Assembly: GCA_022695795.1 (NCBI GenBank)
Contig: MU404103.1
Coordinates: 124,001-188,000 of the forward strand
Reading direction: 5' to 3'
DNA: 64,000 bases
DNA from: Biscogniauxia marginata
Taxonomy: Eukaryota > Ascomycota > Sordariomycetes > Xylariales > Xylariaceae
In this document: in pieces, positions 5,268 through 32,850 of the stretch
How the letters are laid out: the number at the start of each line of letters is the position of its first letter
Position numbering within the stretch: position 1 is the stretch's first letter
Made by a program: the position numbers and the translations under genes
The notes under the pieces: model-generated
Told to the model about the DNA's origin: nothing
The model's input: the letters and a program-made list of their open reading frames with translations, nothing else
Database searches by the model: none

Positions 5268-7784
5268 TCATGATTCATCTACATCCAGTATCCATCCCCA
5301 AGCTTTCTTCAACTGCTGTTGTATTGCTGCCGTGGGCCGAGCGTGATCCGCCTCGGTTTTCCTCAGTAAGTCCGCTAAAGCCTCCTGGTCTGCCCGCTCG
5401 CCAAATTGGTCGCCAACTGCAATTCTAGGTAGTCAGCAAGAATACTCGCTAGTCCACTGGACGGCATCCGTACACATAGCTATACCCATACAGGCCGTAA
5501 ACATGCTTGGTGGAGTCCACTGGTTACAAATCCCAATACCACATAGATCTCGTACGAGGAGTTCGATGCGATCCTATCATGTGTTAATATTCCATCCTAT
5601 GATGATTTGGCATGGTAGCTTGGAACTACCCACCGTCATCCTCCTTACTGCTGATCTTCGATTCGTCCCTACCTTAGGGATTGTTGGATCAAACCGGGTC
5701 AGAAACAGTTGTGCAAGAATAAGGTGCTGAATTCCGATGACTACAATGTGTTAACCTCTGGCCGCCAGATTGGCATTGTTTTGCAAAGTTGACAACCCAC
5801 CATGACAACTAGAGCCATGCCAAATTTCGGGGAAAGCTTCCGTGCCCGTGCGCTCCTTATAAAAGAAGGGGTTGAAAGACATCGGCCTCGTTAGAGACCA
5901 TTTCTCGCACGCTTCGTTCAACGCATCCCAGCGACTAATAGTTAACACACTCTCGCCGAAGCAGAAATTGAGAACATCAGCAAGGAGAATAATAGCCCGG
6001 TTTGACCAGGTATAGTCATCAGTTGGCTCAAAGGTCCGGTCCACGACGTAATGATCCAGACTAACTTTAACAGGTTGCTGGGTGATAACAGCAATATAGA
6101 TTTCCTGTCGAAGTCCCACCCAGAACGAGGCTGAACTCAGACTACCTGGTACCATGTGTTGATCTCCCACGTTGACAAAGGCATGAATACCAAGTAGATG
6201 ACTGTGATTGTCTTGACCGGTAGTCGAACCTGTTATGTGTGCTCAGCAGAAAGAACTTTGTGTCGATTAACTGCCTGCTCACCTTCCATCTCCTCGAGCA
6301 TGCGCAAAATGATTGTCGCCGCAAACAAATTCTCATCTGACACAACCGAAGCGTCACTTAGCATAGGTATGAGATACTTGAGGCATTCGTCGTGATATCT
6401 ATTGGCGGCAAGTGGATCAAAATCTGTTGTGTGACTTAGGTGCCTTGCTGCTATTGCCAGAACCGCGTTTAGTAGTGTATGGCACATGCTAGCACGCTCG
6501 GGCACGACAAGCTCGAAGTGCCTGAGCGGATCACACAAGTCCAGCTAATAAGTGTGGTTAGTAGGTACTCGATTTTGCTTTGAAAGGGCATCTTGTCTTT
6601 GACTCACGCATATCGCTAGCTTTTGAATGTAATGACGAAATAATAGCGCCTCTGTTCGGCTTTTAAGTGGTAACGCTGTGGAATTGTAAAATGTCGAGTT
6701 CAAGGCACTGGCAGGGGTAACTATCCCTGAGCCGATATCAATGCGTAGGGGTGGTGCGTTGAGTAGGTTTCTAGACTTGGTTTCCCCTAGGCCTTCATGG
6801 TTCAGGGGCTGAGTTACTATCGAATCCGTACCTGGGTATAATGAATGAGCTGTGTGGTTGGAACGATCACTCGGCGAGTCGTGGGTAAAAACAGTGTCTC
6901 TTGTTGAAGACGGAGAATTCCCGTGTTGTCTAAAGTCATTAGAGGGCGAGGGTGTGGTGCCCGATGTGACCGACTCCGGCCTCTCATTGTAAGTTTCATC
7001 GATGTGGAACTGGTATTGTGAGACGTCCTCCAGAGGACCTCCGGCTGTTAGGCACCTAGTCTCGTCGACATAGATGACTTTTTGAAAACTTAGCTACGTT
7101 GTTCAACAGCCGCAACTACGATGGCAAAACTCACGTTTCCTCGGTGTTTTGAGCCATTTTTGATTTTTATTGAAAGCCCCTACATAGAGACCATTAGTTC
7201 GGACCGAAAGAAACGGAATTCATTCAGTATGATCATACCTTTGCCAGACTTAAACTTGAAAGCAAGTCTGCAATCGCGGCCTGCGCGAACGCATCTTCCA
7301 CACCTCGGGATCCCGCGGTCACCTACTCGTAGGTGTAACTGTTAATATGAAAATCGGGGACACCGGAATAAGACAGAGATTGAAGGGAGGCTCCTAACAT
7401 TTCAAGTGATGTTCACGGCATGTTACGCTAATTTCAGAAGTTCTTTGAAGTCAGCAACAACTCAAGGAACGAATTGGGTATCTAGCAGGATGACGAGATC
7501 ACATAAACACGGCGTTGGTCAGCAACAGGTTTAAAGTAAAAGTAGGAGAGTATCATTTGTGTCAAGACGACGACAAGCTCTCTAAGACTTTGATATCGGC
7601 ATGTTCCCACTGCAAACTTGTGTTTTTGGACATGGTAATGTGCGGACAACTTTTCCACCAACATCGTGAAGGCAGATTGGGTCGTGAATAGGGCACCCAT
7701 GGTGTTATGCCGAGGTTGGAGGAAGGCTCCCACGTACCACGGTGTAGCCAGAGTTTCGGTCTGGGTCTGATCTGGAGAGGGCAT
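5268..7784 (-). CDS. Zn2Cys6 transcription factor with Fungal_trans_2 domain
   Basis: Nuclear DNA-binding regulator, ten exons by my reading: 7784-7738, 7427-7399, 7322-7239, 7179-7135, 7077-6608, 6544-6283, 6229-5801, 5740-5649, 5573-5474, 5416-5268. They join in phase to about 568 aa. The N-terminus carries a complete zinc cluster, C16-x2-C19-x6-C26-x6-C33-x2-C36-x6-C43, assembled from three exons; introns split the codons for C16 (TG|C) and C26 (T|GT). A Ser/Pro/Thr-rich linker follows (TSGTTPSPSNDF). The middle and C-terminal segments (HFELVVPERASMCHTLLNAV, SFWVGLRQEIYIAVITQQP, LLVRDLCGIGICNQWTPPSM) are typical of Fungal_trans_2 regulators. The first intron is long (about 310 nt), so the first exon is the least certain; the other introns are 46-76 nt. 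It lies head-to-head with the MFS transporter and may control it, which is inference. Confidence 0.85.
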
Positions 7785-13490: not shown

Positions 13491-14592
13491 TTCCTCACCT
13501 GTTGGAGGAGGAAAAGCAAACCAAAGGAAAGGTTTATGTGGTACACCTCCTCAGGGATTAAAGAGGTAGTTAGTGCGTGAAAAGTCCTATACGGCTCTAT
13601 ACACCTAGATATCTCAAATATTATTAGTTTAACTTAACTCCGGATATGCATTTAGAATTAATTAAATATAGCTTTTCACGCATTATTAACCTTAATCTTT
13701 AAAGAAATATAAACCGGCCCGGGGTTTTTTTATATTAAATTAGTTTTTTTAAGTTTATATTTTAAATAATATCATTTAATTAATTTATATTGTTAATAAG
13801 TACGTACGTAAATAAAAGTAATAAGGGTGAGACGTTATATATTAGTTGTTTAAAAAAGTAACTATTTAGTTTAAAGCCGTAAAAGGAAACGGTCTTTATA
13901 TGTTAAAGATATATAAGTACCTCTTTATTTTTAGTGATTATTTAAGGTCTTATTTATTTATAAAACCAATATATATAAAAACTTATTTTTATTATTATTA
14001 ATTAATAATAAAAATGAAGATTTATTTTAAATATAAAAAGTGAATTTTAAATTAATATAATAAAAAATAAATAAAAATATTATTATAAGGGGCTAGCTAG
14101 TTATAAAGTGGCTAAGCTAGCTACTTTATATAACAAGATTAAAGCCTTAGATTTCATTTTTATAAGTAAAATTGCTAACCTTTTAAGGTATTAACGTAGC
14201 GGTTATAAAGCACCGTTATAATAAATATAAACTTTATAAATAAATAAATTATATAAATAAATAAGTTAATTTTTATAATTTTTATAGTTTTAATTATTAA
14301 AAACATTTATATAATATTAAAATTAATTAATAATTATTATTATTTAAATTATTATTTTTAGTTTTACATTTTAAAAACCGAATATTTTTTTATATTAAAT
14401 ATTTAGTTTTTTAACACGTAATTTAAGTCGATTAATTTATAAATAATATATTTATTAACGTATTACATAAGCAAGTAAACAAAACAAGCTTAAAAACGAA
14501 ATGGTTTTCCATATAAAATCGACTTTTTGAAAATTTATAACTTTACTTATAAAAATCGGAAAACTTTTAATCCTTTTTTTCTAATTATATAA
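13491..14592. repeat. Left flank of the RIP island: old AT-rich repeat, inverted relative to right flank
   Basis: Almost pure A/T sequence with no coding frame. Read on the minus strand, 14200-14580 matches the right flank of the outer retroelement. For example, the region around AGTCGATTTTATATG at 14507-14560 pairs with 31648-31705, and AATTAATCGACTTAAATTAC near 14420-14440 pairs with copies at about 32230 and 32460. This is an older repeat into which the outer retrotransposon inserted, heavily eroded by C-to-T change. Family unknown. Confidence 0.6.
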
Positions 14593-14597
14593 CTATA
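14593..14597. repeat. Target-site duplication CTATA, left copy of the outer element
   Basis: CTATA lies immediately left of the outer LTR and is repeated immediately right of the other outer LTR at 31440-31444. A 5-bp duplication is the size made by Ty3/gypsy integrases. Confidence 0.8.
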
Positions 14598-15064
14598 TAT
14601 AACGAACCTCCTTATATGTTCCTAGTCAGCTGACTTCACAAGTAAGTACATACTAGGTTTTCCTAATTTAAAGGTAATAATAAATCAAGGTTAGTTTAAA
14701 AGATTTATAATGCTTCGTTCGTTAAAAAGATTTCAAAATACTTTTATTATAGTATTAAAAAGTAATTATAATTTTAAATTAATAGTTAAAGAACTAAAAT
14801 AAATAACTAAATATAAAGAAATTTAAATTTACTTATACTTATTTCTTTTTTCTTATATTTCTTGCTTTAATATATTAAATACCGTTAAATTCTTAAATCT
14901 TTAAAGATTTAATATATTGGATTTTTATGGATTCTTAAATCTATGGGAATCTATATTACGTAACGTTATATTACACCTTTAATTTAAATTATTTGTTTTT
15001 TATATTTTTAGTTTATATTTAATACCCTTATTAAAAACCCTTTTAACACTATTAATTTATAATA
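14598..15064 (-). repeat. 3' LTR of the outer element (467 bp)
   Basis: Begins TATAACGAAC and ends TTTATAATA, AT-eroded forms of the terminal TGTGACGAAC...GTTCGTAACA seen in the better copies. It pairs with 31006-31439; the extra length is mainly a stretch near 14728-14757 (TTCAAAATACTTTTATTATAG) that the partner lacks. Confidence 0.8.
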
Positions 15065-15246
15065 TTATTTCTCTTCTTTTTAAAATCTTTATTTTAAAGA
15101 TTATTTTTAATAAATTTACTTTTTTTTTATAATTTATTATGTTTAATAACCATATTATTAAGTGTTAACGTCTTAATTAAGGAAAAAAGCGCGAAAGTCT
15201 TACGCGACGTATTAACCTTTACGAAATAAACACCGATATTATACCT

Positions 15247-15339
15247 TATTCTTATTATTTTAAGCACAACTTATTTTATGTCATAACGCCCGGGGAGTCA
15301 CTAAAGTGTAACGAGTATGTTCGCCGAAAAGGCTTATGT
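15247..15339 (+). pseudogene. Antisense cysteine-cluster frame, outer copy
   Basis: On the strand opposite to pol, between the chromodomain and the 3' LTR, the plus frame gives Tyr/Cys at codons starting 15247, 15256, 15277, 15307, 15316 and 15337. The spacing is x2, x6, x9, x2, x6, exactly that of a Zn2Cys6 cluster. Four of the six are TAT (Tyr), the product expected if RIP changed TGT or TGC; two are still TGT. Flanking residues (VITPGESLKCNEY, VRRKGLCNSS, PLNSFNRLNLKEK) read like a real protein. The frame is broken elsewhere. Its role in the element is unknown. Confidence 0.6.
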
Positions 15340-15779
15340 AATAGTTCCGAAATACCTTTAAATTCCTTTAATCGCCTAAACTTAAAAGAAAAACGACTTT
15401 TTCTTTAAAAGCATTAAATAAAGTTAATTTTTATTTACCGTTAAAAGGAAATTTCTTGGTTATAAAAAGAGGTTCGTAAATCCATTATTTATATACTTCG
15501 CTTATATTATTAACGTGACTTTATTCGAAAAAAAAGGCTTAAAAATGTTATAATGTAATTTTTAAAATTTAAACGAATTAAAAAAGTAAAAACGTTTAAA
15601 AAAGAAATAAAAACGCTTTTAAGTTAAATAATAATTTCTAATTAAATAAGTTAAAGTTACTTTTAAGGCCGTTCCTTTTTTTAACTTGTCTTTTTTAAGT
15701 TAAAATCCCAAATTTTAGGTCTTTTTAACTAATTTAAGTTTTATCGATAAAACTTATTAAGCGCTTCTCTCGAGTTTAT

Positions 15780-15905
15780 TAAGTGCTTAAATATTTTCTA
15801 TATATTTTCTTTTAATAAGTATCTTTTTTACTTAACTAAATATTATAATTAATTATTAACTCTTTTTAAGTTTAAAATCCTTTTTATTTTATATTTATTT
15901 AGTTT
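15780..15905 (-). pseudogene. Chromodomain remnant of pol, outer copy
   Basis: The minus strand resembles the chromodomain coding stretch of the inner element at 21870-21982, at the same distance from the LTR, but with more C-to-T damage and stop codons. It marks the C-terminal end of pol. Confidence 0.55.
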
Positions 15906-16743
15906 TTCTTTAATCTTGTTCCGGGTTTTTAACGAGGCGTTTTTTAATATTAATTTTAATAGCGATATATAAAATATTAAATATATTCTAAATTTCTTTA
16001 ATAGTTTTAGTTTATAATTAATACTTAAAATGATTTCCTTAATTTCGTAAGGTTTTAATTTCTTAAAGTTAAGTTTTTTATTAAATCGTTTTATTTTAAT
16101 TTATAAAGTTTTTATTAATATATTTTGCCGTTATTATAATAAATAAACCTTATCTCTTTTCTTAAAAATTAGTTTTTTAATTCTTTTTTAATTATAATAT
16201 TTTATTATTTGGTTTTAAATAAACTATAATTTTTTTGTAATTATAATTATATTGCCTAGACTTTTTTAGATAATATTTCTACTTTTAAGGTTTTTATTTT
16301 GACTTTTAATGTTTTTATAAGTTTAATTAATTGTTTTTAGATTTCTGTTTTTTAATTGTATATTACTTTGTATAGTGATATTTTTATATTTTCGTTAACC
16401 GAAGTGTTATACGTTATTTAGGCTATTAATAGTAATTCTACCTAGTTATTTATTTCTTAATTAATATAACTTCGTAAATATTGTTTTATTATTTAGTTTA
16501 GTTTCTTTATTTATCTGTTTAATTAAGGATAATACGTTATAAATAACTTTTATTTATTTTTTATTTATTTTATTAAATTAGTTTAAAACTTTAACGTGAA
16601 TAATTTATTTATATTTATTAATATATTTTTTAAGAAACTAAAAACTAGTTATTTTATTATGCTTAACTCGTTAAATAATAAAAAGTAGGTATATTTTATG
16701 AGTTTATTAACGATTATTTATATATTATTATAAGGTATTTTTA

Positions 16744-17172
16744 TGTGACGAACCTCCTTGTGTGTTTCTAGTTAGTTGACTTTATAGGTGAGTACGTATT
16801 AGGTTTTCTTGATTTAAAAGTAACAGTGAATTGAGATTGGTTTAAGAGATTTATAATGCTTTATTCGTTAAAGAGATTTCAAGGTATTTTTATTATAGTA
16901 TTAAAGAGTAATTATAGTTTTAAATTAATAGTTAAAAAACTAGAATGAATAACTAAATATATAAGAAATCTTATTCTTTTTATATTTATTATTTTGTTTT
17001 TTATTTCTTATAATTAATATGTTAAATACTTTTAAATAAGTTTTATTTATATTTATTTATATTACGTGATAATAAGTCGTTTCCTTTTTAAGATTTATAT
17101 TTAAGCCGGACGTAAAAAGAGTAAGAATAGTATTTTTGTTACTTAATTACTTATTTTGATTAATTCGTAATA
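16744..17172 (-). repeat. LTR of the second copy (429 bp)
   Basis: Begins TGTGACGAACCTCC and ends ATTCGTAATA. The first 230 bp match the other LTRs closely. The tail differs from the outer pair and has only a remnant (ATTACGTGATAA) of the CACGTG site. Confidence 0.75.
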
Positions 17173-17193
17173 TTATTTGAGGTATTAAAGAAA

Positions 17194-17420
17194 TGTAATA
17201 AATGCGTTTTTTATTATTGTTAATATAATAAAGTAAGAATTCTTTTTAGTTCTTTTCGAAATTTAAATTATAAGAAGAAGTAATTATTTTTATAAAAACG
17301 TTAAGCCGAGAAAGCCTTAAAACGACTTTACTGAGAAATGGCCGAGATTATAACTTAAATAAAACAAGAAATGATTAAAATTATAATTCGTGTGAAACGG
17401 CTTTGTCGTTAAAAGGAGTT
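17194..17420 (+). pseudogene. Antisense cysteine-cluster frame, second copy, first half deleted
   Basis: About 200 bp present in the other two copies is missing next to the LTR. What remains begins TGT-AAT-AAA-TGC, a C-x2-C followed at x6 by a TAT codon, equivalent to the second half of the motif. Confidence 0.4.
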
Positions 17421-19754
17421 ATTAAAAAAGAAAAATTTAAAGATGTTTTAATATAGTTTTTAAAATTTAAATAAATTAAAAGAGTAAAATCGTTTAAAAG
17501 AGAAATAGAAACGTTTTTAGGTCGAGTAATAATTTTTAGCCGAGTAAGCTAAAGTTGCTTTTAAGGCCGTTTCCTTTTTAAATTTATTTTTTTTTGAATT
17601 AGAATTCTGAAATTTAGGCTTTTTTAGCCGGTTTAAGTTTTGTCGATAAAATTTATTAAGTTTAATTATTAGGTTTTTTAAATGTTTAAGCGGTTTTTAC
17701 GTGTTTTTTTTTAGTAAGTAACTTTTTTATTTAATTAAATATTATAATTAATTACCGACCCTTTTTAAGTTTAAAATCTTTTTTATTTTATATTTATTTA
17801 GTTTTTTTTTAATTTTGTTTTAGGTTTTTTAATGTTAGTTTTAAAAGTAAAATATGGAATATAAAATGTATTTTAAATCTTTTTAGAAAAAAGAGTTTAT
17901 AATTAACTTTTAAAATAATTTCTTTAATTTTATATGGTTTTAACTTTTTAAATTTAAGTTTTTTATTAAGCCGTTTTATTTTAATTTAAAGCGTTTTTAT
18001 TAATACGTTTTATTATTAATAAAATAAGTAAATTATATTTTTTTAAGAATTAGTTCTTTAATTTTTTTTGTTATAATATTTTATTATTTTATTTTAAATG
18101 AATTATAATTCTTTTTATAATCGTAGTTATATTATTTAGACTTTTTCGGATAATATTTTTGTTTTTAAGGCTTTTATTTTAACTTTTAATGCTTTTATAA
18201 GTTCGATTTATTGTTTTTAGATTTCTGTTTTTTGTTTATATATTAATTTATATAGTGACATTTTTATGTCCTTGTTAATCGAAGTGTCATATGTTATTTA
18301 AGTTATTAATAATAGTTTTATTTAATTATTTATTTTTTAGTTAATATAGCTTTAAAGGTATTATTTTATTATTTAATTTAGTTTTTTTGTTTATTTGTTT
18401 ATTTAAAGATAATATATTATAAATAACTTTTATTTATTTTTTATTCGTTTTATTAGGTTAGTTTAAAACTTTGAAGTAAATAACTTGTTTTTATTTGAAA
18501 TAATACGTTTTAATAATTTATATTTATTAATATATTTTTTTAAGAAATTAAAAATTAGTTGTTTTATTATGTTTAACTTGTTAAACGGTAAGAAGTAAGT
18601 ATATTTTATAAGTTTATTAACGATTATTTATATGTTATTATAAGGTATTTTTATAGTAAGATTTTTTAATTTAAGGAGTTTTATTATGAAATCTCATATA
18701 ATTGTGTGTTATACTTTATTAGGTATTTAAGTTAATTATAATAATTTATATGGTTTATATCGTGATACTTTAACTTTATTATAAATGTTATAACTCTTTA
18801 TAATTCTTTTTATTGTTTATCGTATTTCTAGAAAGTCGAATTCTTTTTAAAGTCGTTTTAACGTTTTGAAAATTCCTTGGTAATTATGTAGGGGGTGTTT
18901 ATAAAATTCTTTAACGAATTTGTTTTATATTTATTTTAGTATATAAACCTTTTCTTTATACAAGAGAAGTTTATTACTAGATCCTTATTAAAATTGTAAT
19001 TCTTTTTCTTTTTAATTATAATTCTCTTTAAAACGTTATTTCTAGTTTTTTATATTGATTTACATGTAAATTAATATAATTAATTTGTTATTTTGTTGTT
19101 TAAATATTTAGATATTTTTTTTGTTAAGTAGATTTATTTAAATGTTTTTTTAATATAATTAATTTTAAAATTAAACTTAAATAGGAAAATTATTTAACGT
19201 TTATGATTTTAATTAAACGTTTATGTTATTATAAATTATGTAAAGTTCTTATAATTTAAATAAATATTAATAAGTTTTTTAGTTTTATTAAGTTATGGTT
19301 TTTATTTTTTAATGCTTTAATAACTATTAATAATTCTTTGTTATAAATTTAATAATTTAGTTTAGTACTATGTAGTGCTTTAAATAAGTATGTGACTAAG
19401 TATTATTTTTTATTATTTTTTAATTGTTTTAAGACTATTTCGATGGCGAAATTTAAGGCGTTTATTCTTAGTCGTTTTTTTTTTGTTTTCGTTAAGGTAG
19501 TTAGTTTTATTAATAATTTAACGTAATTAATAAAGCCAAGAAACGCGTGTATATTTGTAACACTTTTAGGTTTTAGTTAATTCTTGATTATTATTATTTT
19601 TTCTTTTTAAATTTAGATTTTTTTGGACTTATTATAAACTTTAAATAATTTAGTTTTTTAATATATTATTTATTTTTAGTTGGATAAACGAGTAAGTTTA
19701 CTTTTTTTAAGGCTTTTAACATTTGTTTTATATGTTTTTTATGCTTTTTTTTCG

Positions 19755-19885
19755 TTTTTTAAGTAAATTAGTATATCGTCTAAGTAAACAAATATAAATT
19801 TATTTAAGAACTTACAAAGGATTATTATAATTATATGTTAAAATGTAGCGGGTGTATTAATAAGTTTAAATAGTATAACTTTATA
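19755..19885 (-). pseudogene. Reverse transcriptase core with YLDD, second copy
   Basis: On the minus strand the frame reads LFKLINTPATF (compare the family's PFGLTNAPATF) at about 19846-19880, then a spacer, then FIFVYLDDILIYLKNE. The YLDD codons lie at 19775-19786. This is the active-site motif of Ty3/gypsy reverse transcriptases. Two direct repeats TAAGTAAA at 19760 and 19781 bracket it; the inner copy has lost the 21 bp between them. Stop codons elsewhere make the gene dead. Confidence 0.8.
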
Positions 19886-20720
19886 TTTATAATATTTATA
19901 TATTATTTAAAAGGCGGTATACTATTTATGTTTTTTAATTATTTTAATTATATAATAATTATTACGAAGGTTTAATGTTATAAAGATTTAAGCTTTATTA
20001 ATTTGCTTTTTTATAAGTTTTATTAGTAGTAACAAGTATTTTTTTTTTGTTATTTTATTAAGATGTTAGTAGTTAATTACTCGTCGCCATATTAGATTTC
20101 TTTTTTTATTAATTTGTTGTTTTTCGTTTTTATCGATTTTTAGTACTATAATTACTAGGTATTTTAACGAGGATTTTAATTTTTAAATGTATTTTTTGTT
20201 AAGATCCTTTTAAATTCTTTTTTATAATGCTTTTTGTTTTTCCTGATTTATAAGATATACTAAAAATAGTTTTAATTATTTTTCTTCTTTAAAGTAGATT
20301 TAGTGATTTTATTAATTATGTTTTAATAATTCTTTTTTTATTTTATCTTTAAATAATTTATAGAAATGAAGGTACTTACGTAATACTTTTTTCATTAGAT
20401 TTTTAAGCTTAGTTACTCGAATTATATAGGCGATATATTTCGTTTTTATATTCGTTTTTTTAGTGTTATTTGCGATACTTATTTTATAACTCGTAATAAT
20501 TAACTCCTTTTAATTTTAATTTTAATAAAACGTATTTATCTCGAAATTTATTTATAAATTACTTTTTTTAAATTAATTCATTTTTAGGATTATATCGTGA
20601 TTCGATATATATATAATGTTAAGAATAACTTACTTAAAATGTTTTTAAATGGTTATTAAAAAAGGAATTATTTTTCTTAATACCTTATTATTTTTATAAT
20701 TAAATATATTTTTTTTAAAG

Positions 20721-20725
20721 TTTTA
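20721..20725. repeat. Target-site duplication TTTTA, left copy of the inner element
   Basis: TTTTA precedes TGTGACGAAC here and follows GTTCGTAACA at 28164-28168. Sequence on the two sides joins to one uninterrupted copy of the host element's internal region. Confidence 0.8.
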
Positions 20726-21151
20726 TGTGACGAACCTCCTTGTGTGTTCCTAGTTAACTGACTTCACAGGTGAGTATGTATTAGGTTTTCTTGATTTAAA
20801 GGTAACAATGAGTTAAGATTGGTTTAATTAATTCACAATATTATGTTCGTTAGAGAGGTTTCAAGGTACTTTCATTATAGTATTAAAAAGTGACTATAGT
20901 CTTAGATTAATAGCTAAGGAATAAAAAATGAATAACTAGATACATAAGAAATCCCATCCTTTTTATATTTAATTTCCTCCTGGGATAATGTTTAACATCT
21001 TTAATTATTTTCTCTTATTCTTTATAAAAGTAATAAAGAATATAATCATTCTCTTTTATTCTTTATAAGAGCAATAAAGAATACTATTATAAGTCACGTG
21101 ACCCATATTTATATAACCATTTACCTTTTTAACCCTTATTAATTCGTAATA
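20726..21151 (-). repeat. 3' LTR of the inner element (426 bp)
   Basis: Longer than its partner by 41 bp because of a tandem duplication near 21010-21090: the TCTCTTATTCTTTATAA...AGTAATAAAGAAT unit occurs twice, once in the partner. It contains the palindrome GTCACGTGAC at 21093-21102. Confidence 0.85.
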
Positions 21152-21217
21152 TTATTTCTCCCTTTTAACTTGTTTTATCTTTAAAACGCTTTAAGTTAAT
21201 ACTTATCATTTTTCACT

Positions 21218-21840
21218 ATGTCTTTAAGAAGGATAACTAAACGTTCTCGACCAGATTTAAAGAAGAGTTCCACTAAACATCGTTATAAGCTAGTTTCCGC
21301 GATTACCAAGTTTGGTTTCGAAGTCATGTTATGCTCCCGCTATTTCGATTAAGGCCTTACTTATAAGATGTTAAAAAGCCGTAAAAAGTATTAAAACTAT
21401 ATTAAAACAAACATTCTTTAATACGACGGAAATTACATTTCTTTTAATTCCCTAAAAAACATTCGTTTAGAAAAACTGCGTATTAATAAGGAGAAATATG
21501 CGGCCTTCGAGAAACACCGACATATTCTTTAAAGCTTTTAAAAGCTTTTAACTCGTATGTCCCGTTTAAACTAATAATCCGAGTTTCTTCGCGAGCGAGA
21601 AATAAAATTCGTTTAACGTAAACTTAAAAACTTAAATGAGTTAAAGAAGCAAAAACTCCTTAAAGCAAAGTAATAGCGTTTTAATAAAAAACAATAACGT
21701 ATAAAGAAATTACTACGTTAGTTTAAATCTAAGCAAAACATACTTACTTTAAAGGTTTTCCCCTTTTTTAACTGGTTTTAACTAGATCACGACCCGGGTT
21801 CTCAAATCCCCCTAAGCGATCTAGGTTTTAGCGGTAAAAG
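21218..21840 (+). pseudogene. Antisense frame with Zn2Cys6-like cysteine spacing, inner copy
   Basis: A plus-strand frame starts at ATG 21218 with a basic N-terminus (SLRRITKRSRPDLKKSSTKH). Codons starting 21332 (TGC, Cys), 21341, 21362, 21389, 21398 and 21422 (all TAT or TAC) are spaced x2, x6, x8, x2, x7, which fits the Zn2Cys6 pattern if the Tyr codons are RIP-altered Cys. TAA codons interrupt it. Downstream it continues as a charged, helical stretch (LEKLRINKEKYAAFEKHR) and ends in a Ser/Leu-rich segment near the chromodomain. It occupies the same antisense place in the outer copy. Whether it was ever a gene of the element or a captured host fragment cannot be told. Confidence 0.6.
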
Positions 21841-21867
21841 TTCTCAAGTTTATTCGTTAAATTCTTT

Positions 21868-24800
21868 AAATACTTGAGTAGTTCCTAAGTGTTTTCCTCG
21901 GGTGGGTAACCTTCCTATTTAATAAAGTATTACAATTAACTTTCGACCCGTTTTAAATCTAGTATCTTTTCTACTTTATACTTATCAGGGTTTTCTTTAA
22001 ATTCTAGTTGGTTTTCTAGCATGGCGTTATTTAATACTGGTTTTAAAAGCGAAACATGAAATACAAGATATATTCTAGATCTTTTTAGTAATACTAACTT
22101 ATAATTGATTTTTGAAATAACCTTTTTAATCTTATATAGTCTTAATTTTTTAAATTTAAGTTTTTCGCTAGGTCGCTTTATTTTAATTTAAGGTGTTTTT
22201 AATGTTACGCTTTGTCGTTAACGGAGTAAATAAACCATATTTCCTTTTTTAAGAATTAGTCCCTTAATTCTTTTTTTATTATAGTACTTTATTATTCTAT
22301 CTTGAATGAATTATAATTCTTTTTATAGCCGTTATTATACTACCTAGACTTTTTTGAATAGTACTTCTACTCTCGAGGCCTTTATTTCAATTCTTAGTGC
22401 TTTTGTGAGTTTAATTGATTGTCTTTAAACCTCCGCCCTTTACCTATACACTATTTCGTGTAGTAACATCTTTATATCTTCGTTAATCGAAGTATTATAT
22501 GCTATTTAAGCTATTAATAATAATTTTATTTAATTATTTATTTCCTAGTTAATATAACTTCGTAAATATTGTTTTATTGTTTGGTTTAGTTTCTTCGTTT
22601 ATTTGTTTATTTAGGGGTAATATATTATAAATAACTTTTATTTAATTTTTATTCGTTTTATTAAGCTGGTTTAAAATTTTGACGTAAATAACTTATCTTT
22701 ATTTAAAATAACGCGTTTTAATAATCCATATTTGTTAACGTATTTTTTTAGGAAACCGAAAATTAATTATTTTACTATGTTTAATTCGTTAAATAATAAG
22801 AAGTAAACGTATTTCGTGAGTTTATTAACGATTATTTATATATTATTATAAAGTACTTCTATAGTAAAATCTTTTAACTCTAAAAGTTTTATTACGAAAT
22901 CCCATGTAATTATGTGCCACGCTTTATTAAGTATTTAAGTTAGTTATAATAGTTTATATAGTTTATGTCGTGATGCTTTAACCTTATTATAAATGTTGTA
23001 ATTCTTCATAATTTTTTTGATTATTTGTTGTATTCCTGGAAAGTCGAATTCCTTTTAAAGTTATTTTATTGTTTTGAAAATCCCTTGGTGGCTGTGTAAG
23101 GAATATTCGTGAAATTTTTTAACGAATTCGTCTTATACTCGCTTTAATACATATACTTTTTCTTTATACAAGAGAAGTTTGTCGTTAAATCCTTATTAAA
23201 ACTGTAATTGTTTTTCTTTTTAATTATAATTTTCCTTAAAACGTTATTTCTAGTCTTTTATGTTGATTCACATATAAGTTAATATAATTAATTCGTTATT
23301 TTATTGTTTAAATATTTAAATATCTCTTTTATTGATTTTTGATTTATAATCTCTCCTTTTATTAAGAAGATCTGCTTAGATATTTTCCTTTCCTTTAATG
23401 TACTAAATTTTAAAATTGAACTTAAACAGGAAAATCATTTAACGCTCGTGTCTTTAATTAAGCGTTTATATTATTATAAATCATATAAAGTTCTTATGGT
23501 TTAAATAAATATTAATAGGTTCTTTAATTCCGTTAAGTTATAGTTCTTATTCCTTTAATGCTTTAATAACTATTAATAGTTCCTTATTATAAATCTAATA
23601 ATTTAGTTTAGCATTATATAGTGCTTTAAATAGATATACGACTAAGTACCATTTCTTATTATCTTTTAATTGCTTTAAGACTACTTTAATAGCGAAATTT
23701 AAGACGTTTGTCCTTAGTCGTTTCTTTTTATTTTCATTTAGAAGTTTATATATAACCTTACTAGTTACAACTTTCTTTAGTTATTGAAAAGCTTATTTAG
23801 CTTCTTTAGTAAAATAAAAAGCCTTTCTTGTTTTCGCTAAAGTAGTTAGTTTTATTAATGGTTTAGCGATACGCTCGAAATCTTTAATGAGTTATTTAAT
23901 ATAATTAATAAAGCTAAGAAATATATATACGTTTATAACACTCTTAGGTTTTAGCCAATCCTTAACTATTATTATTTTTCCCTTTTAAATGCGGATTTTT
24001 CTTAAACTTATTATAAACCCTAAATAATTTAGTTTTTTAATATGCTATTTACTTTTAATTAAATAAATAAGTAGGTTCGCCTCTTCCAAGGCTTTTAACA
24101 CTTACTCTATATATTCTTTATACTCCTTCTCGTTTTTTAAGTAAATAAATATAAATTTATCTAGAAACTTACGAAAAATTATTATGATTATATGTTAAAA
24201 TATAATAGGTGCGTTAATAAGTCTAAATAGTATAACTTTATATTTATAATATTTATATATTATTCGAAAAGCTATATATTATTCGTGTTTTTTAGCCATT
24301 TTAATTATATAATATCTATCGCGAAGATCTAGTACTATAAAGATTTAAGCCTTGTTAATTTGTTTTCTTATGAGTTTCATTAATGGTAATAAGTACTCGT
24401 TTTTCTTGGTTATTTTATTGAGATGTTAATAGTTAATTACTCGTCGTCACACTAGGTTTCCTTCTTTATCGATACGTTATTTCCCGTTTTTATCGACTTT
24501 AAGTACTATAATTACTAGGTATCTTAACGAGAATTTTAATTCTTGAATATATCCTTTATTAAGATCCTCTTAAATTATTTTTTATAATGCTTTTTATTTT
24601 TCTTGATTTATAAAATATATTAAAAATAATTTTAGCTATTTTCTTTTTTTAAAGTGAATTTAGTGATCTTATTAACTATATTCTAATAATTCTTTTTTTA
24701 TTTTATTTTTAAATAATTTATAAAAACGAAAGTACTTGCGCGGTACTCTTTTTATTAGATTTTCAAGCTTGGTTACTCGAATTATATAAGCGATATGTTT

Positions 24801-27700
24801 CGTTTTTATATTCGTTTCTTTAGAGTCACTTGCGGTACTTATCTTATAACTTGTAATGGTTGACTTCTCTTGTTTTTAATCTTAATAAAGCGTGTTTATC
24901 TCGAAATTTATTTGTAGATTACTTCTTTTAAGCTAATTCATCTCTAGTATTATGTCGTGATTTAATATATATATAATATTAAAAGTGACTTATTTGGGGT
25001 GTTTTTAAATAGTTATTAAAAGAGGGACTATTTCTCTTAGCACTTTACCATTTTCATAACTAGATATATATCCTTTGAAGTTTTGTAATTAATATAAACT
25101 TTGTTTATATATTTATGGTATTTTGTTTTTCTGAGTTATTTTAATTAAAATATAGCTTTTATTTATTTTTAAGTTTATAAGGGCTTTATATTCCCTTTTA
25201 TTATACTTGATTCTAGTTTTAATAATATTATTAAGTCTTAACTAGACTTTATATAAGGACTTGTTATTCATAGCTTCTCGCTGCCTTATTAGCAAGAGCC
25301 TTTACCGTTTTTTAGTCTTTTACGTTCCTTCTCTTTTGGTTTTCTTTTAGTTATTATAATCCGGATGTCCTTCTATTTTTGGGCTTTTATAAGAGCGTGT
25401 TTCTAGTAATTATTATTTAAATAATCTTTTTAATTACCTTTTACGTAATAAGAGGTAAAAGGTTTATTCTTTATATAAAACCTTATACATTAAAACTTTA
25501 ATTCTTTTTCGAGAGCCTTTTTATAACCTAAATTTGTTTTGTTAACTCGGAATTTCTTAAAGTTTTAAATTATCCTCGAATAAAAAGAATAATTCTTGAG
25601 TTTATTTATTAAAGGTATCTCGATATATCCCCTTAAATTTATATTGATTTTTAAAAGTTTTCCTCTTTTTTTAAGGTATACTTTAATAATTTATTTATAG
25701 CCCCGTTTAATTACACGTGTTTTTACTTATTGCTTTATTAAGTATTTCTCTATAAAGCCGAATAGATTAATGTCGTATTTAGTTCATTCTTCGAGCTATT
25801 ATGAAAGATATAGTCCTTTCCATAATTCCCATAATTCTTCCTTAATCTCGTCTTTTTCGAAACCTGCTTCAAGTAAGTCGTGTACGTCGCATAATACCGA
25901 GATATAACATATATAACTTTTAGTAATTACTTCGTTGCTTCTTTCAAAACCGGGGTAAAAATAACATGTTTAAGGAAAATATAACCATCGTGGGATGTTA
26001 TTATAAATACATTTATTTTTTTTTATATTATTATTTTTTAGTTTTTAAGAATAATAACTAGTTTTATCTTTAAAATTTTTATATATTTAATAAACGTTAT
26101 TAATATAAAAACTCTAATATAACGATATATATTCTTTTAAGCTTTAATGGACATCGTAATTGTTATTTATATAAAACCTTCCGTTTAAGCTATTATATTA
26201 GCTTCTTCTTTAATAAGTTTCGCATTTGTCGTTATTATAATGACTTTAATGTAAATTATTATGGTTTAACTTAATTCCTAAGTCGTATCTTAGCTTGTAA
26301 TTATTATATTTGTATAGTAGTTCGCTTTTATTATATCCTTATTTGGCTTGTTTTGGTGTGAGATATTCTAGATATAAGTGGTTATCCTTTAAGTAGTTTT
26401 TACGGTTAACTTAATAAGATTTATAAACTTCTTTTATAAGGGCCTTCTCATTTTTCTCTGCTTTAATAATGCCGATAATAAACACTTGGTTTATTTCCTT
26501 GTTATTTTTAAATTAAACCTTTGCCTTAACGGCTCTTTTCTCGGGTTAAAAAATCCCTTTTATTTTTAGTTCTTATTTCTTAGGACTTCGGTACTCATTT
26601 TTATAATATCCTTTTTTTTTATAGTTAAAACACTTAATAGTTAATTTATCTCGTTTCTTTTATTCCTTTTAAATAATGTTGATTTTAATGGGATTTAACT
26701 TGGTTTTAGTGCCTTTCCTGGTTCCGGTACCGCTTTTGTGATTTCCTCTTTTTAGTTAATTGCCATTCCTTCGTTATACCGTTTTTTTCTTTTTAAAGTA
26801 CCGTTCGAAGTTCTTGTTATTAATGGTAATTACCATTATAACGTAATTATTAAACTTTTCTAGGTTTTTTTCTTTATATAAGTTTATTTTATATAGCTTA
26901 TTCTTTATATAGTTTTTTAATTTTTAATAAAACAAGTAATATAGGCTTTTAATAAGTAGTTATAATTAACTTGCGAGTTTTTTAAACTTAATAGCGTAAT
27001 TTAAAGCCTTCTTATTTTATCGTAATTTATAAAGTCAAGTTTTAGCTTATTACTTAAGAATTAAATTGCTAAATATAAACTTAAATTGTTTTTTAAACTT
27101 CTTATAATTCTTGAAGACTTTCTTCGTGTCTTTTTAGGCGTTTAATCCGTTTTTTAGATAATCCTTTAACACTAGTTAAAACTAGGTTAAGGCGGTTCCG
27201 GCGAGGAGCTGGAATACCGTGAAAACCTTTTATTCCTTAGTAGTAATTGTTTTATAATAAAACTGTAAATAGGTTCCGGCTTAAATTAGAAATCTTTTTA
27301 GATCGCTTGACTCATTATATTTACTAGGTGTAATTAGTTTAAAACCCTTCACATCGGGGGTTGTTATATTGTTTTTGTCGTTTGAGTTATTAGGGTCGCT
27401 ATCGTTTGAGGGTGGTTTTGGTTGCTTGTTTTTAGAAAGTAAGGATTGTTTTGCTTATTTGTTTTCTTTTTAGGTGTTTTTTTCTCCTTTTTTTCTTTTT
27501 TTTTAAATGATTCTTCGTGTTGAGCTTTCGAGGTGTCCTTTTATAACTCTTTTTTAGTTATAATTGTAATAAACTTTTATGTTGGTTTTTTTAAACCTTT
27601 TTATTGTATTATAAAAAGACTTAAAGTTTTCGTTTAAAAGCTTATTAATTGTTATTCTTTTACTTGTTTCTTTTTTTATTGCCTTTTGGTTTTAGGGGGC
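21868..27700 (-). pseudogene. gag-pol of the inner retrotransposon, inactivated
   Basis: Polyprotein region broken by many stops. Zinc knuckle: the minus frame at 26587-26640 reads C-F-N-Y-x4-Y-x4-Y, a CCHC box with Cys and His replaced by Tyr. Reverse transcriptase: LFRLINAPIIF at about 24205-24240 matches the PFGLTNAPATF block, but the following FIFIYLKNE lacks the YLDD residues, an in-frame loss of seven codons compared with the second copy. Chromodomain at 21870-21982: YKVEKILDLKRV, then YFIK-stop-EGYPPEEN, with TAG where Trp is expected. Protease and integrase motifs were not resolved. Confidence 0.75.
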
Positions 27701-27778
27701 ATGCTTATCCTGGGACCGTTCGATTAAAAGTCCCTCCTTTTAAATCAATGTTAAGCACTAATTAAAGAGCTATTAAAA

Positions 27779-28163
27779 TATGACGAACCTCCTTATATGT
27801 TTTTAATTAGCTAACTTCATAGGTAAGTACGTACTAGGTTTTCTTGATTTAAAAGTAACAATGAGTTAAAATTGGTTTAATTAATTCACAATGTTATATT
27901 CGTTAAAGAGGTTTCAAGGTACTCTCACTATAGTATCAAAGAGTGACTATAGTCTTAGATTGATAGCTAAGGAACAGAAAATGAATAACTAGATACATGA
28001 GAAATCCCATTCTTCTTATACTTAATTTCCTCTTGGGACAGTGCCTAACATCTTTAATCATTCTCTCTTATTCTCTGTGAGAGCAACAGAGAATGCTACT
28101 ATAGGTCACGTGACCCATGTTCACATGACCATCCACCTTTCCAACCCTTGTTGGTTCGTAACA
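27779..28163 (-). repeat. 5' LTR of the inner element (385 bp)
   Basis: The best preserved LTR, from TATGACGAAC to GTTCGTAACA. It contains a perfect 12-bp palindrome GGTCACGTGACC at 28104-28115 and a short foldback (ATTCTCTGTGAGAGC...ACAGAGAAT) just before it. A 61-codon open frame overlapping its end is not a gene. Confidence 0.85.
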
Positions 28164-28168
28164 TTTTA

Positions 28169-31005
28169 TAATTTATATAAACTTTATTTATATATTTATA
28201 ATATGTTATTTTTTAAGTTATTTTAATTAAGATATAGTTTTTATTTATTTTTAAGTTTATAAAGGTTTTATATTCCTTTTTATTATACTTAACTTTAATT
28301 ATAATGGTATTATTAAGTCTTAATTAAACTTTATATAAAGACTTATTATTTATGGCTTTTCGCTGCCTTATTAGCAAGAGTTTTTACCGTTTTTTGGTTT
28401 TTCACGTTTTTTCCCTTTTTAGTTTTTTCGGGTTATTATGGTTTTGATTTCGTTTTATTCTTAGGCTTTTATAAGAGCGTGTCTCTAGTAATTATTATTT
28501 TAATAGTCTCTTTAACTGCTTTTTACGTAATAAGAGGTAAAAAGTTTATTTTTTATATAAAACCTTATATATTAAAACTTTAATTCTTTTTAAGGGCCTT
28601 TTTATAGCTTAAATCTATTTTTTTATTAATTTAAAAACTTTTAAAGTTTTGAATTATTTTTAAATAGAAATATAATTCTCGGGTTTATTTATTAAGAGTA
28701 ATTTAATATTTCTTTATAAGTTTATATATATTTCTAGAAATTTTATTTCCTTTTTAAAATATACTTTAATAATTCGTTTATAATTTAATTTAGTTATATG
28801 TATTTTTACTTGTTATTTTATTAAGTGTTTTTTTATAAAACTAAATAAATTAATATCATATTTAGCTCGTTTTTCGAGTTAGCGTGGAAAATATAGTTTT
28901 TTTTATAATTCTTATAATTTTTTCTTTATTTCGTTTTTTTTGAAACCCGTTTCGAGTAAATCGTGTATATCGTATAATATTAAGGTATAATATATATAAC
29001 CTTTAATAATTATTTTATTACTTTTTTCGGAACTTAAGTAAAAATAATATGTTTTAAAATAATATAGCTATTATGAGACGTTATTATAAATACATTTATT
29101 CTTTTTCGTGTTATTACTTTCTAGTTTTTAAGGATAATAACCGGCTTTATTTTTAAAGCTTTTATATATTTAATAAGCGTCGTTAATATAAAAGCTTTAA
29201 TATAGTGATTTATATTTTTTGTGACTTTATTATTTTATCTTTATTAAAGTAAAATGTTTCGTTTTTTAGTTATTTAACCATTTTTAACTTTGATTTAAGT
29301 TTTTTATTTAATAAACATTATAATTATTATTTATATAAAATTTCTAATATAAGTTATTATATTTACTTTTTTTAATATGTTTCGCACTTATTATCATTAT
29401 AATAGCTTTAATATAATTTATTATGGTTTAATTTAATTTTTAAGTCATGTCTTAATTTATAAGTATTATATTTATATAGTAATTCACTTTCGTTATATCT
29501 TTACTTAGCTTATTTTAATGTAAAGTACTTTAAATACAAGTAACCGTGTTTTAAGTAGTCTTAAAGATTAATTTAATAGTATTTATAGTTTTCGCGTATC
29601 GTAATAAATAAGTAATAATACTTTAAGTAACGTTTATAAATTTCTTTTTTATAATTTTAATAAATATTATAACTTTTTATAGGGACTTTTTTGTCTTTTT
29701 TTGCTTTAATAATAATAATAATAAATATTTAATTTACCTTTTTATTATCTTTAAAATGAACTTTTATTTCGAAAGTTCTTTTTTCGAGTTAAGAAATCCC
29801 TTTTATTTTTGGTTTTTATTTCTTAGGACTTTAATACTCGTTTTTATAATATCCTTTTTTCTTATAATTAAAATACTTAATAATTAATTAATTTTGTTTT
29901 TTTTACTCCTTTTAAGTAATGTTGATTTTAATAAGGTTTAATTTAGTTTTAATGCTTTTATTTGTTTTAGCACTACTTTTATAATTTCTTTTTTTATTAA
30001 TCGCCGTTTTTTCGCTATATTGTTTTTTTCTTTTTAAAATATCGTTTAAAGTTTTCGTTATTAATAATAATTGTTATTATAACGTAATTATTAAACTTTT
30101 TTAGGTTCTTTTCTTTATATAGTTTTATTTTATATAACTCATTTTTTATATGGTTTTTTAGTTTTTAATAAAATAAGTAATATAAGCTTTTAATAAGTAG
30201 TTATAATTAATTTACGAGTTTTTTAAATTTAATAACGTAATTTAAGGCCTTTTTATTTTGTTATAATTTATAAAGTTAAGTTTTAATTTGTTATTTAAGG
30301 ATTAAGTTATTAAATATAAACCTAAGTTGTTTTTTAAACTCTTTATAATCTTTAAAGACTTTTTTTATGTCTTTTTAAGCGCTTAATTTATTATTTAAGT
30401 GATTTTTTAATATTAATTAAAACCAGGTTAAAGTAGTTTTAACGAGAAACTAAGATATTATAAAAACCTTTTATTTTTTAGTGGTAATTATTTCGTGATA
30501 AAATTATAAATAAGTTTCAACTTAAATTAAAAATCCCTTTAAATTATTTAACTTATTATACTTATTAAATATAATTAATTTAAAACCTTTTATATCGGGG
30601 GTTATTATGTCGTTTTCGTTATTTAAACTATTAAGGTCGCTATCGTTTAAAGGTGGCTCCGGCTATTTATCTTTAAAAAGTAAGGGTTATTTTGCTTATT
30701 TGTTTTTTTTTTAGGTGCTTTTTCTTTTTTAAATGATTCTTTTTACTGGGCTTTAAAGGTGTCTTTTTAGGGCTTTTTTTTTAGTTATAATTATAATTAA
30801 TTCTTATGTTAATTCTTTTAAACCTTTTTATTATATTATAAAAGAATTTAAAGCTTTCGTTTAAAAGCTTATTAATTAAGGTTTTTTTACTTGTTTCTTT
30901 TTTTATTACTTTTTAGTTTTAAAAGGTATGTTTATTTTAAGATAGTTTAATTAAAAGTCCCTTTTTTTAAACCAATATTAAACATTAATTAAAGAGTTAT
31001 TAAAA
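28169..31005 (-). mobile_element. 5' half (gag side) of the second/outer copy, resumed after the inner element
   Basis: Begins as the direct continuation of 20725 (compare 25086 onward in the inner element) and matches to 27778. It carries the same zinc-knuckle remnant near 29831-29885. About 150 bp extra near 29200-29330 is absent from the inner copy. Which of the two older elements each part belongs to is uncertain because of the apparent recombination. Confidence 0.65.
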
Positions 31006-31439
31006 TGTAATGAACCTCTTTATATATTCCTAGTTAATTAACTTTATAAATAAATATATATTAGGTTTTCTTAATTTAAAGGTAATAATAAATCAAGGTT
31101 AATTTAAAAGATTTATAATGTTTCGTTTATTAAAAAGTAATTATAATTTTAAATTAATAGCTAAAAAACTAAAATAATTAATTAAATATAAGGAAATTTA
31201 AATTTATTTAAATTTATTTCTTCTTTTTTATATTTCTTATTTTAATATATTAAATACCGTTAAATTTTTAAATCCTCGAGGATCTAACGCACTAGATTCT
31301 TATGAATTCTCAAATTTATAAGAATTTATACCACGTGACGTTATATTGCACCTCCAACTTAAACTATTCGTTCTTTGTATTCTTAGTCCGTGCTTAACAC
31401 CCCTGTTAAAGACCCTTTTAACACTATTAATTTATAACA
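31006..31439 (-). repeat. 5' LTR of the outer element (434 bp)
   Basis: Begins TGTAATGAAC and ends TTTATAACA, followed by CTATA, the same five bases that precede 14598. It has CACGTGACG near 31333. Confidence 0.8.
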
Positions 31440-32850
31440 CTATATAGTTTAATTAAAATAAAATTCAAAAAATAAAAAGTGAAATATATAAAGAAATATA
31501 TAAAAGGGTCCGTGCGTTTTATTTTAATTTTAGTTTTTACGCGTTTTCTTTTCACGTTTTTTAAAATGAATTTTTTCGATTTTACTTTTAATTAAACCGA
31601 ATAATTATATAATTAAAAAAAAGGTCCGAGATTTTTACGATTATTACGTGTAAAGTTATGAACTTTTAAAAAAGTCGATTTTATATGAGAAATTAAGTGG
31701 TTTACTTGCTTATATAACTCACTTACTTATAAGACATGTTAAATAAGGTTAAAAAGCACTAAAAAAGATTTTTATAAATATTATAAATATTTATAATTAA
31801 CTTATAAAAACTATATTACGAGATAAAATTACTTATTTTCGAGAAATAAATCACATTTTTAATAAACGATATAAAACTAAAAATAATTAATTATAAATAA
31901 AAAACATTTAATATAAAAAAGGGAATAACTTTATAAGTTAAAAATAATAATATTATAATTAATAAAAAAAAGGTCTCGAAAAAAAGTAATAACTAAATAA
32001 AAACGATATAATATATATAATTAAATTAATTATAATACGTATATTTATATAGCAAATAAAAATACATTTAATAATATAATAAATAAAAATATAATTAATA
32101 ACATTTATATAATAAATAAAAAGATATTTAATAATTTAAATTTTAAGGATTTATAATTAATTTTATTTATTATTAATTTTTTATTTTAATTTTAAAGGAT
32201 TTTAAACTTGGAAAATATAATAAATTAATTAACTTAAATTACGCGTTAAAAAACTAAATACTTAATATAAAAAAAGTATTTGATTTTTAAAGCGTAAAAC
32301 TAAAAAAAACGATTTAAATAATAATAATTATTAATTAATTTTAATGTTATATAAATATTTTTTAATAATTAAAATTATGAAAGTTGTAAAAACTAACCTA
32401 TTTACTTATATAACTTACTTACTTATAAGACACGTTAATAATAATAAATATATTATTTATAAATTAATTAACTTAAATTATATGTTAAAAACTAAATATT
32501 TTATATAAAAAATATTTAAATTTTAAAATATAAAATTAAAAAAACATTTAAATAATAATAATAATTAATTAATTTTAATATAAAATAAATAATTTTTAAT
32601 AATTAAAAATGTAATAATTATAAAATTTCGTTTATTTATTTATATAATATATATTTAAACTTTTATAAAATACTTTTAATAATTTATTTATTTATTTATA
32701 TATATTTAAAATAAATTTTATTATTATATAAAATTAAAAACTTAGTTTTATTTAACTAACTTTTTATTATAACGTTTATATTATAAGTTTAAAAGAGGTA
32801 TATATTTCGTTCCTTATAACCGACCGTATTAATAGTAATTAAAGCACCTT
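31440..32850. repeat. Right flank of the RIP island: AT-rich repeat with tandem and inverted copies
   Basis: No coding frame. The segment around 32200-32440 and a second around 32440-32660 are diverged direct copies of each other (both contain AATTAACTTAAATTA, TGTTAAAAACTAAATA-like and TTAATTAATTTTAAT stretches). Both are inverted relative to 14200-14470 on the left flank. CTTACTTATAAGACA also occurs at about 31725 and 32415. Confidence 0.6.

What the first reader, a model, noticed from the sequence alone, without database searches (positions are those of the whole stretch)
15247..21840. Antisense Zn2Cys6-like reading frame carried inside the retrotransposon
On the strand opposite to gag-pol, between chromodomain and 3' LTR, two copies have six Cys-or-Tyr codons with spacing x2-x6-x9-x2-x6 (15247-15339) and x2-x6-x8-x2-x7 (21332-21424). 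Tyr codons are TAT/TAC, the RIP product of TGT/TGC. The third copy keeps the second half. The same place and similar spacing in separate insertions argue for a gene that belonged to the element family, perhaps a DNA-binding accessory or a captured zinc-cluster gene. This is the best candidate here for an under-described system.
Basis: partly seen in the sequence, partly recalled or inferred. Interest (0 to 1): 0.75.

Follow-up and report, generated by a model that had tools for sequence, protein, structure and literature searches.

The report
Antisense zinc-cluster gene in fungal retrotransposons
Inside mutated jumping genes of a fungus, on the strand opposite to their usual genes, lies the wreck of a real extra gene for a small zinc-cluster protein that looks like a DNA-binding regulator; less damaged relatives occur elsewhere in the same genome and in public protein data.

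Summary
Both six-codon motifs lie at the stated places on the + strand; gag-pol runs on the - strand. The loose Cys/Tyr motif alone is weak (six matches in 14-33 kb, four without detectable homology to this gene). The gene is nevertheless real: (i) own-genome searches find many copies (117 matches), and two places with long open frames, L039 (six of six Cys) and L063 (230 aa, five of six); (ii) in 54 copies the six columns hold Cys or Tyr codons (TGY/TAY) in 314 of 318 cells, each column being Cys in some copies, so Tyr is best read as RIP-mutated Cys; (iii) 50 of 54 have an LTR upstream on the same strand, and 50 of 54 a chromodomain downstream on the opposite strand; (iv) 22 of 22 aligned public relatives keep all six Cys, followed by a long helix. 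Zn_clus is touched by 18 of 22 but passed by one. Best reading: a nuclear, dimeric Zn2Cys6-like regulator encoded antisense between pol and the 3' LTR, acting on the element's own LTR (inferred, not shown). Antisense extra genes are known (Boty brtn, Grande, Retand), so this is a new variant of a known kind; my searches found no print linking one to Zn2Cys6.

The parts
20726..28163 (-). Element C, LTR to LTR, RIP-mutated, with 5-bp target duplication TTTTA on both sides (20721-20725, 28164-28168)
20726..21151 (.). LTR of element C that is 3' for gag-pol and lies upstream of the antisense gene
27779..28163 (.). Other LTR of element C (5' for gag-pol); start approximate
21094..21101 (.). Palindrome TCACGTGA in the LTR, 124 bases before the ATG of the antisense gene
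21152..21163 (-). Polypurine tract next to the 3' LTR (reads TTATTTCTCCCT on the + strand), 66 bases before the ATG
21218..21853 (+). Antisense zinc-cluster gene of element C, broken by stops; from the ATG to where similarity to the 230-aa frame of L063 ends
21332..21424 (+). Six-codon Cys/Tyr motif of copy C: TGC TAT TAT TAT TAT TAC
21834..22136 (-). Chromodomain region at the end of pol of element C (Pfam match 21834-21980, protein similarity 21945-22136); meets the 3' part of the antisense gene
22674..22892 (-). Integrase core piece of element C
   Evidence: tblastn with an open piece of L063
25119..25346 (-). Protease-like piece of element C (named by eye, not by a family search)
27374..27692 (-). 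Probable gag start of element C (by place and similarity to L039; no family search)
14597..15064 (.). LTR upstream of copy A of the antisense gene (ends approximate)
14956..14963 (.). Form TTACGTAA of the same palindrome in the LTR of copy A, 183 bases before the ATG
15139..15700 (+). Antisense zinc-cluster gene, copy A (open from 15181 to 15405); end approximate
15247..15339 (+). Six-codon Cys/Tyr motif of copy A: TAT TAT TAT TGT TAT TGT
15843..16052 (-). Chromodomain region of element A
16586..16744 (-). Integrase piece of element A, cut at the LTR of element B
16744..17172 (.). LTR of element B upstream of copy B
17179..17367 (+). Second half of the antisense gene, copy B (TGT, TGC, TAT at the last three columns)
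17742..17937 (-). Chromodomain region of element B
18466..18684 (-). Integrase piece of element B

Best explanation
These Ty3/gypsy elements with a chromodomain carry an extra gene on the strand opposite to gag-pol, between pol and the 3' LTR, reading from the LTR inwards and meeting the end of pol tail to tail. It encodes a protein of roughly 165-230 aa: a short start, a Zn2Cys6-like cluster, a long helix (probably a coiled coil) with the block MLRRGLKTLDELDEVEE, and a variable tail that in many relatives holds an SPSFW-type patch. Shown: the gene, its place, its six cysteines, its protein-type conservation between subfamilies, and relatives in public protein data. Inferred: antisense transcription from the 3' LTR; nuclear entry; zinc binding; dimerisation; binding of a site in the element's own LTR (the palindrome TCACGTGA is a candidate) so as to set sense and antisense transcription. 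The window copies are broken by RIP.
For: Own-genome searches: 117 matches with copy A (at least two pairs overlap), 44 DNA matches with copy C, 29 with P0001. Open frames: L039 (133 aa) and L063 (230 aa). TGY/TAY in 314 of 318 cells. Anatomy: LTR upstream on the same strand in 50 of 54 copies, chromodomain on the opposite strand in 50 of 54, polypurine complement 64-77 bases before the ATG in 49 of 54; independently 31 of 31 zinc-chromodomain pairs within 1.5 kb are on opposite strands, 30 of them tail to tail. 25 public proteins including P0001 itself and 2 more found with L063; six Cys invariant in the 22 aligned of 27. Profile against PDB: PUT3 first, E 0.0072 and 0.011; Zn_clus touched by 18 of 22 at E up to 1. 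AlphaFold model of P0001: helices 29-34 and 48-53 behind the two Cys pairs, helix 64-121, block means above 90 from residue 11 to 140. Transversions, which RIP does not make, fall at codon positions 1:2:3 as 229:141:330 over 21 subfamily pairs; within families B and C all 9 distinct transversion sites (6 and 3) are at position 3, while the LTR of C gives 5:4:4.
Confidence: 0.6

Rival explanations
1. Chance: in AT-rich RIP DNA, Tyr codons are so common that Cys/Tyr patterns arise anywhere.
For: Four further loose matches in the window have no detectable homology to this gene.
Against: TGY/TAY in 314 of 318 cells in 54 copies, open relatives with real Cys, public proteins with six Cys in 22 of 22.
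Confidence: 0.02
2. The protein works in integration or nuclear import rather than transcription: it binds chromatin or DNA and guides the pre-integration complex, beside the chromodomain of integrase.
For: It meets the chromodomain gene tail to tail in 50 of 54 copies; the basic start KRRR in L039 could be a nuclear signal (by eye). PMC7264820 (passages) suggests nuclear roles for antisense extra ORFs in retrotransposition.
Against: A separate antisense transcript is an odd way to make a part of the particle; zinc cluster plus coiled coil is the plan of transcription factors (inference).
Confidence: 0.2
3. What counts is the antisense transcript as RNA (dsRNA, silencing or interference with the sense transcript); the protein matters little.
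For: Convergent overlap with pol of about 185 bases in L063. Antisense transposon RNAs are reported for Blumeria hordei in PMC10648671 (passages).
Against: Protein-type conservation: six Cys in 22 of 22, least change at codon position 2 between subfamilies.
Confidence: 0.1
4. A host zinc-cluster gene was captured and rides along as a passenger.
For: Zn2Cys6 genes are typical of fungi (recalled), and such a factor is the best PDB profile match.
Against: The gene is kept in diverged subfamilies at the same place and conserved in public relatives; a passenger would decay.
Confidence: 0.05

Closest known systems
brtn, the additional antisense gene of Boty elements (Botrytis cinerea, also Sclerotinia sclerotiorum): Zhao et al. 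2011, Virology 417:248; not read, seen only as cited in passages of PMC8365987, PMC7264820 and PMC4227169
   Same: Fungal LTR element with chromodomain; extra gene antisense, between pol and 3' LTR
   Different: I could not read the paper or get its protein, so homology is untested; the citing passages name no zinc cluster for it
Plant antisense extra ORFs (aORF-3R): Grande gene23, RIRE2, PvRetro13, Retand with TRP28 (passages of PMC7264820 and PMC11963269)
   Same: Same place and orientation; some nuclear or predicted to bind DNA
   Different: Plant hosts; the domains named there are SMC and TRP28, not a zinc cluster
Antisense genes of HTLV (mentioned in passages of PMC11963269 and PMC7264820; HBZ and its details recalled)
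   Same: Antisense from the 3' LTR; HBZ is of DNA-binding type and regulates sense transcription (recalled)
   Different: bZIP, not zinc cluster (recalled); an animal retrovirus; no homology claimed
Gal4-type Zn2Cys6 factors such as PUT3, HAP1, PPR1
   Same: Six-Cys spacing; PUT3 best PDB profile match; short helix behind each Cys pair and a long helix after the cluster in the model
   Different: Host genes, longer proteins (recalled); 21 of 22 element-type relatives miss the Pfam cut-off

Membership tests
Zn2Cys6 binuclear cluster (PF00172) | Six Cys with spacing C-x2-C-x6-C-x5..12-C-x2-C-x6..8-C (pattern recalled) | tested here: met
   L039 has six of six; six Cys columns invariant in 22 of 22 aligned proteins
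Zn2Cys6 binuclear cluster (PF00172) | Score above Pfam's cut-off (21 bits) | tested here: inconclusive
   1 of 22 relatives above (P0011, 22.0 bits); P0001 20.1; L039 13.4; L063 none; P0024, P0026 and P0027 none at E<=0.5; 18 of 22 match at E up to 1
Zn2Cys6 binuclear cluster (PF00172) | Fold of the cluster | tested here: inconclusive
Zn2Cys6 binuclear cluster (PF00172) | Binds two zinc ions and DNA | not testable with these tools
   needs protein
Antisense additional ORF between pol and 3' LTR (aORF-3R) | Position and orientation | tested here: met
   LTR upstream same strand 50 of 54, chromodomain downstream opposite strand 50 of 54
Antisense additional ORF between pol and 3' LTR (aORF-3R) | Present in most copies and conserved as a protein | tested here: inconclusive
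   Many copies and protein-type conservation between subfamilies, but only 30 of the 148 chromodomain matches entered faced a listed zinc match (lists are lower bounds and mix element families), and family A shows no excess at codon position 3
Antisense additional ORF between pol and 3' LTR (aORF-3R) | Antisense transcription | not testable with these tools
   no RNA data
brtn of Boty | Sequence homology to the brtn product | not tested
   paper not held; no sequence at hand
Ty3/gypsy element with chromodomain | LTRs, target duplication, integrase core and chromodomain | tested here: met
   chromodomain 63.8 bits in C118, window match 29.5 bits, both over the cut-off; rve in C118 28.4 bits, below its cut-off 32.6; reverse transcriptase was not searched by family

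The most novel reading that the evidence does not exclude
Chromodomain retrotransposons of ascomycetes carry their own dedicated zinc-cluster transcription factor, made antisense from the 3' LTR, which as a coiled-coil dimer binds the conserved palindrome TCACGTGA in U3 and so couples antisense to sense transcription: a fungal counterpart of HTLV HBZ built on a different DNA-binding fold, and a factor that could also act on host genes near LTRs.
Probability: 0.25. Interest if true: 0.75.

Novelty: new variant of a known kind. Interest (0 to 1): 0.57.

Why it matters
[quoted passage not shown] PMC7264820 (passage) says that no clear similarities to other proteins had been described for those of LTR-retrotransposons, though it names an SMC domain in one and a transposase 28 domain in another. 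A recognisable zinc-cluster type with a long helix makes the function testable: does the element make its own transcription factor? It would also explain a set of small hypothetical zinc-cluster proteins in public data as likely transposon genes. The way it was found, Tyr as the RIP scar of Cys, can be used to read other dead genes.

Tried and rejected
The - strand frames at the two places were translated first and held no such motif; it is on the + strand. Pfam on the window piece gave nothing. Scans of viral contigs and genome contigs with alignment A1, each by one short peptide pattern, gave no relatives, so the element context of the public relatives could not be read. NCBIfam gave only single-member matches. 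The PDB search with L039 gave only gp41/GCN4-type coiled-coil peptides at E 0.058 and worse. Foldseek in the PDB gave three matches, all at E 7.7 or worse. Inside family A, distinct transversion sites show no excess at codon position 3, although counts per copy did (47:49:99); I use the distinct sites. Chance was rejected. Rows dropped: ten loci (L001, L003-L009, L035, L051) as duplicates, and loci without a tblastn match at E<=1e-3 do not appear; in A2 five N-terminally short proteins (P0018, P0020, P0021, P0022, P0025) of 27, 148 of 150 chromodomain matches and 20 of the 44 matches were entered. The origin of the gene from a host zinc-cluster gene was not tested. Papers were seen as search listings and as passages only; none was read whole.
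Full report
What was checked. The two motifs are in the sequence at exactly the stated coordinates, on the + strand. Copy A reads YSYYFKHNLFYVITPGESLKCNEYVRRKGLC at 15247-15339; copy C reads CSRYFD*GLTYKMLKSRKKY*NYIKTNIL*Y at 21332-21424. Both frames run from an ATG (15139, 21218) that lies 74 and 66 bases behind the complement of a polypurine tract at the end of an LTR. On the - strand of element C lie the chromodomain region (21834-22136), an integrase piece (22674-22892), a protease-like piece (25119-25346) and a probable gag start (27374-27692). Element C runs from 20726 to 28163 with the target duplication TTTTA on both sides. The third copy (17179-17367) keeps the second half; the stretch from the polypurine complement to that half is missing.

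Chance. A loose Cys/Tyr pattern is cheap in such DNA: six matches in 14001-33000, four of them not matched by tblastn with L039 or L063; 200 Markov-1 simulations give 0.27 on average and at most 3. So the pattern alone was a lead, not proof.

The rest of the genome. With the 75 open residues of copy A as query, the window's own genome (45.3 Mb, 229 contigs) gives 117 matches, of which at least two pairs overlap; 9 of the 117, the query itself included, have no stop inside the match. Copy C gives 44 DNA matches, of which the first 20 cover most of the query. P0001 gives 29. Two places are decisive. L039 (C2:904054-904365:-) has an open frame of 133 aa starting MSVNRGTKRRRE with the cluster CSYCFDHNLKCVMSPEVSKKCGECILHQRQC, all six Cys; it is little mutated here (GC 0.51) and lies between two LTRs only some 800 bases apart, with what looks like a gag start on the other strand, so it is an internally deleted element and its frame is cut short behind the start of the helix. 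L063 (C118:1-6000, found, not) has an open frame of 230 aa at 170-862, with a chromodomain at 825-965 on the other strand and an integrase match at 1599-1826 on the other strand (below the family's cut-off). In L063 the - strand frame with the chromodomain has a TAG-type stop at 915-917 and otherwise runs on to a TGA at 678-680; if the inner stop is a RIP scar (inferred), pol and the antisense gene overlap tail to tail by about 185 bases.

Tyr is mutated Cys. In 54 copies (ten duplicate loci left out; L039, L063 and the window copies counted) the six columns hold TGT, TGC, TAT or TAC in 314 of 318 cells: 212 of 213 in copies read against L039 and 102 of 105 in those read against L063. At the other columns the mean share is 4.6% and 3.1%, with a few single columns high (for example 0.91 at a natural Tyr of L039). 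All twelve columns have Cys codons in some copy, including the third column of family C (L055), where L063 has TAT. TGY to TAY is the RIP change (C to T in CpA, recalled) seen from the other strand. Between L063 and window copy C the commonest differences are G to A (90) and C to T (65), the reverse changes being 16 and 30.

Anatomy. Of 54 copies, 50 have an LTR upstream on the same strand (52 on either strand), 50 a chromodomain downstream, all 50 on the opposite strand, 48 have both an LTR and a chromodomain; the polypurine complement sits 64-77 bases before the ATG in 49. By an independent route, 31 of 31 pairs of a zinc match and a Pfam chromodomain match within 1.5 kb are on opposite strands, 30 of them in tail-to-tail order; these are 21 of 117 and 10 of 20 zinc matches, and 30 of 148 chromodomain matches, all lists being lower bounds.

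Protein-type conservation. Using only transversions, and only columns fixed within each of seven subfamilies (three of them single copies), the 21 subfamily pairs together give 229:141:330 at codon positions 1:2:3; 8 of the 21 alone reach p<0.05, and the pairs are not independent. Within families B (L039 against three copies) and C (11 copies) all distinct transversion sites are at position 3 (6 of 6 and 3 of 3), while the LTR of C gives 5:4:4. Family A does not show this (23:27:23; 2:5:7 in the open part), which counts against a uniform picture; behind 15405 the frame of copy A is not reliable.

A possible target. The palindrome TCACGTGA, allowing for RIP, is found between 350 and 60 bases before the ATG in 40 of 53 copies against 1.3 expected from Markov-1 simulations: at -172 to -186 in most copies of the A, B and related subfamilies (two at -153 and -156), at -124 or -125 in C, at -116 in L063 (copies are related, so this is no probability; 13 of 53 lack it). 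It lies in the LTR, in U3 for the sense promoter. It may as well be the site of a host factor.

How it most likely works. The gene sits where the 3' LTR can drive it; its product has the plan of a dimeric fungal zinc-cluster factor. The simplest use for the element is to set its own transcription. Steps shown: gene, place, cysteines, conservation between subfamilies. Steps inferred: transcription, nuclear entry, zinc, dimer, DNA site, regulation.

Known relatives. PMC7264820 and PMC11963269 (passages) describe antisense extra ORFs at this place in plants; PMC7264820 cites Boty's brtn for fungi (Zhao et al. 2011, not held; also cited in PMC8365987, and PMC4227169, passages). The survey of fungal LTR elements PMC3248453 has no occurrence of 'antisense' or 'zinc'. 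Searches aimed at print on such a gene; I looked at their listings and at passages of eight papers. The last search (Zn2Cys6, LTR retrotransposon, antisense) gave 0 papers. The library holds only open-licence papers, so this does not prove absence. Verdict: a real gene, new variant of a known kind.

Noticed in passing
window 21094-21101 and 14956-14963; also 116 to 186 bases before the ATG in most copies: Palindrome TCACGTGA in the LTR, kept in 40 of 53 copies of several subfamilies although it holds CA and TG, the RIP target; candidate regulatory site
   Followed up: partly
L063 678-862: The pol frame, one inner stop apart, and the antisense gene overlap tail to tail by about 185 bases; behind the chromodomain pol reads RRRGRPPK, which resembles an AT-hook (by eye)
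   Followed up: partly
L039 about 3970-5700: A short derivative with two LTRs, a probable gag start on one strand and an open antisense frame on the other, hardly mutated inside (GC about 0.5) though its surroundings are
   Followed up: partly
window 14597-31450: Nested insertions: similarity to L063 runs across element C from 20726 to 28164, and A- and B-type pieces lie on both sides; the LTR at about 31006-31445 looks like type A
   Followed up: partly
window 17172-17179: Copy B seems to have lost the first half of the antisense gene by a deletion that starts inside the polypurine complement
   Followed up: no
window 26161-26334, 28167-28271, 29389-29496: Further Cys/Tyr patterns of Zn2Cys6 spacing without detectable homology to the gene; a warning against using the loose motif alone
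   Followed up: no
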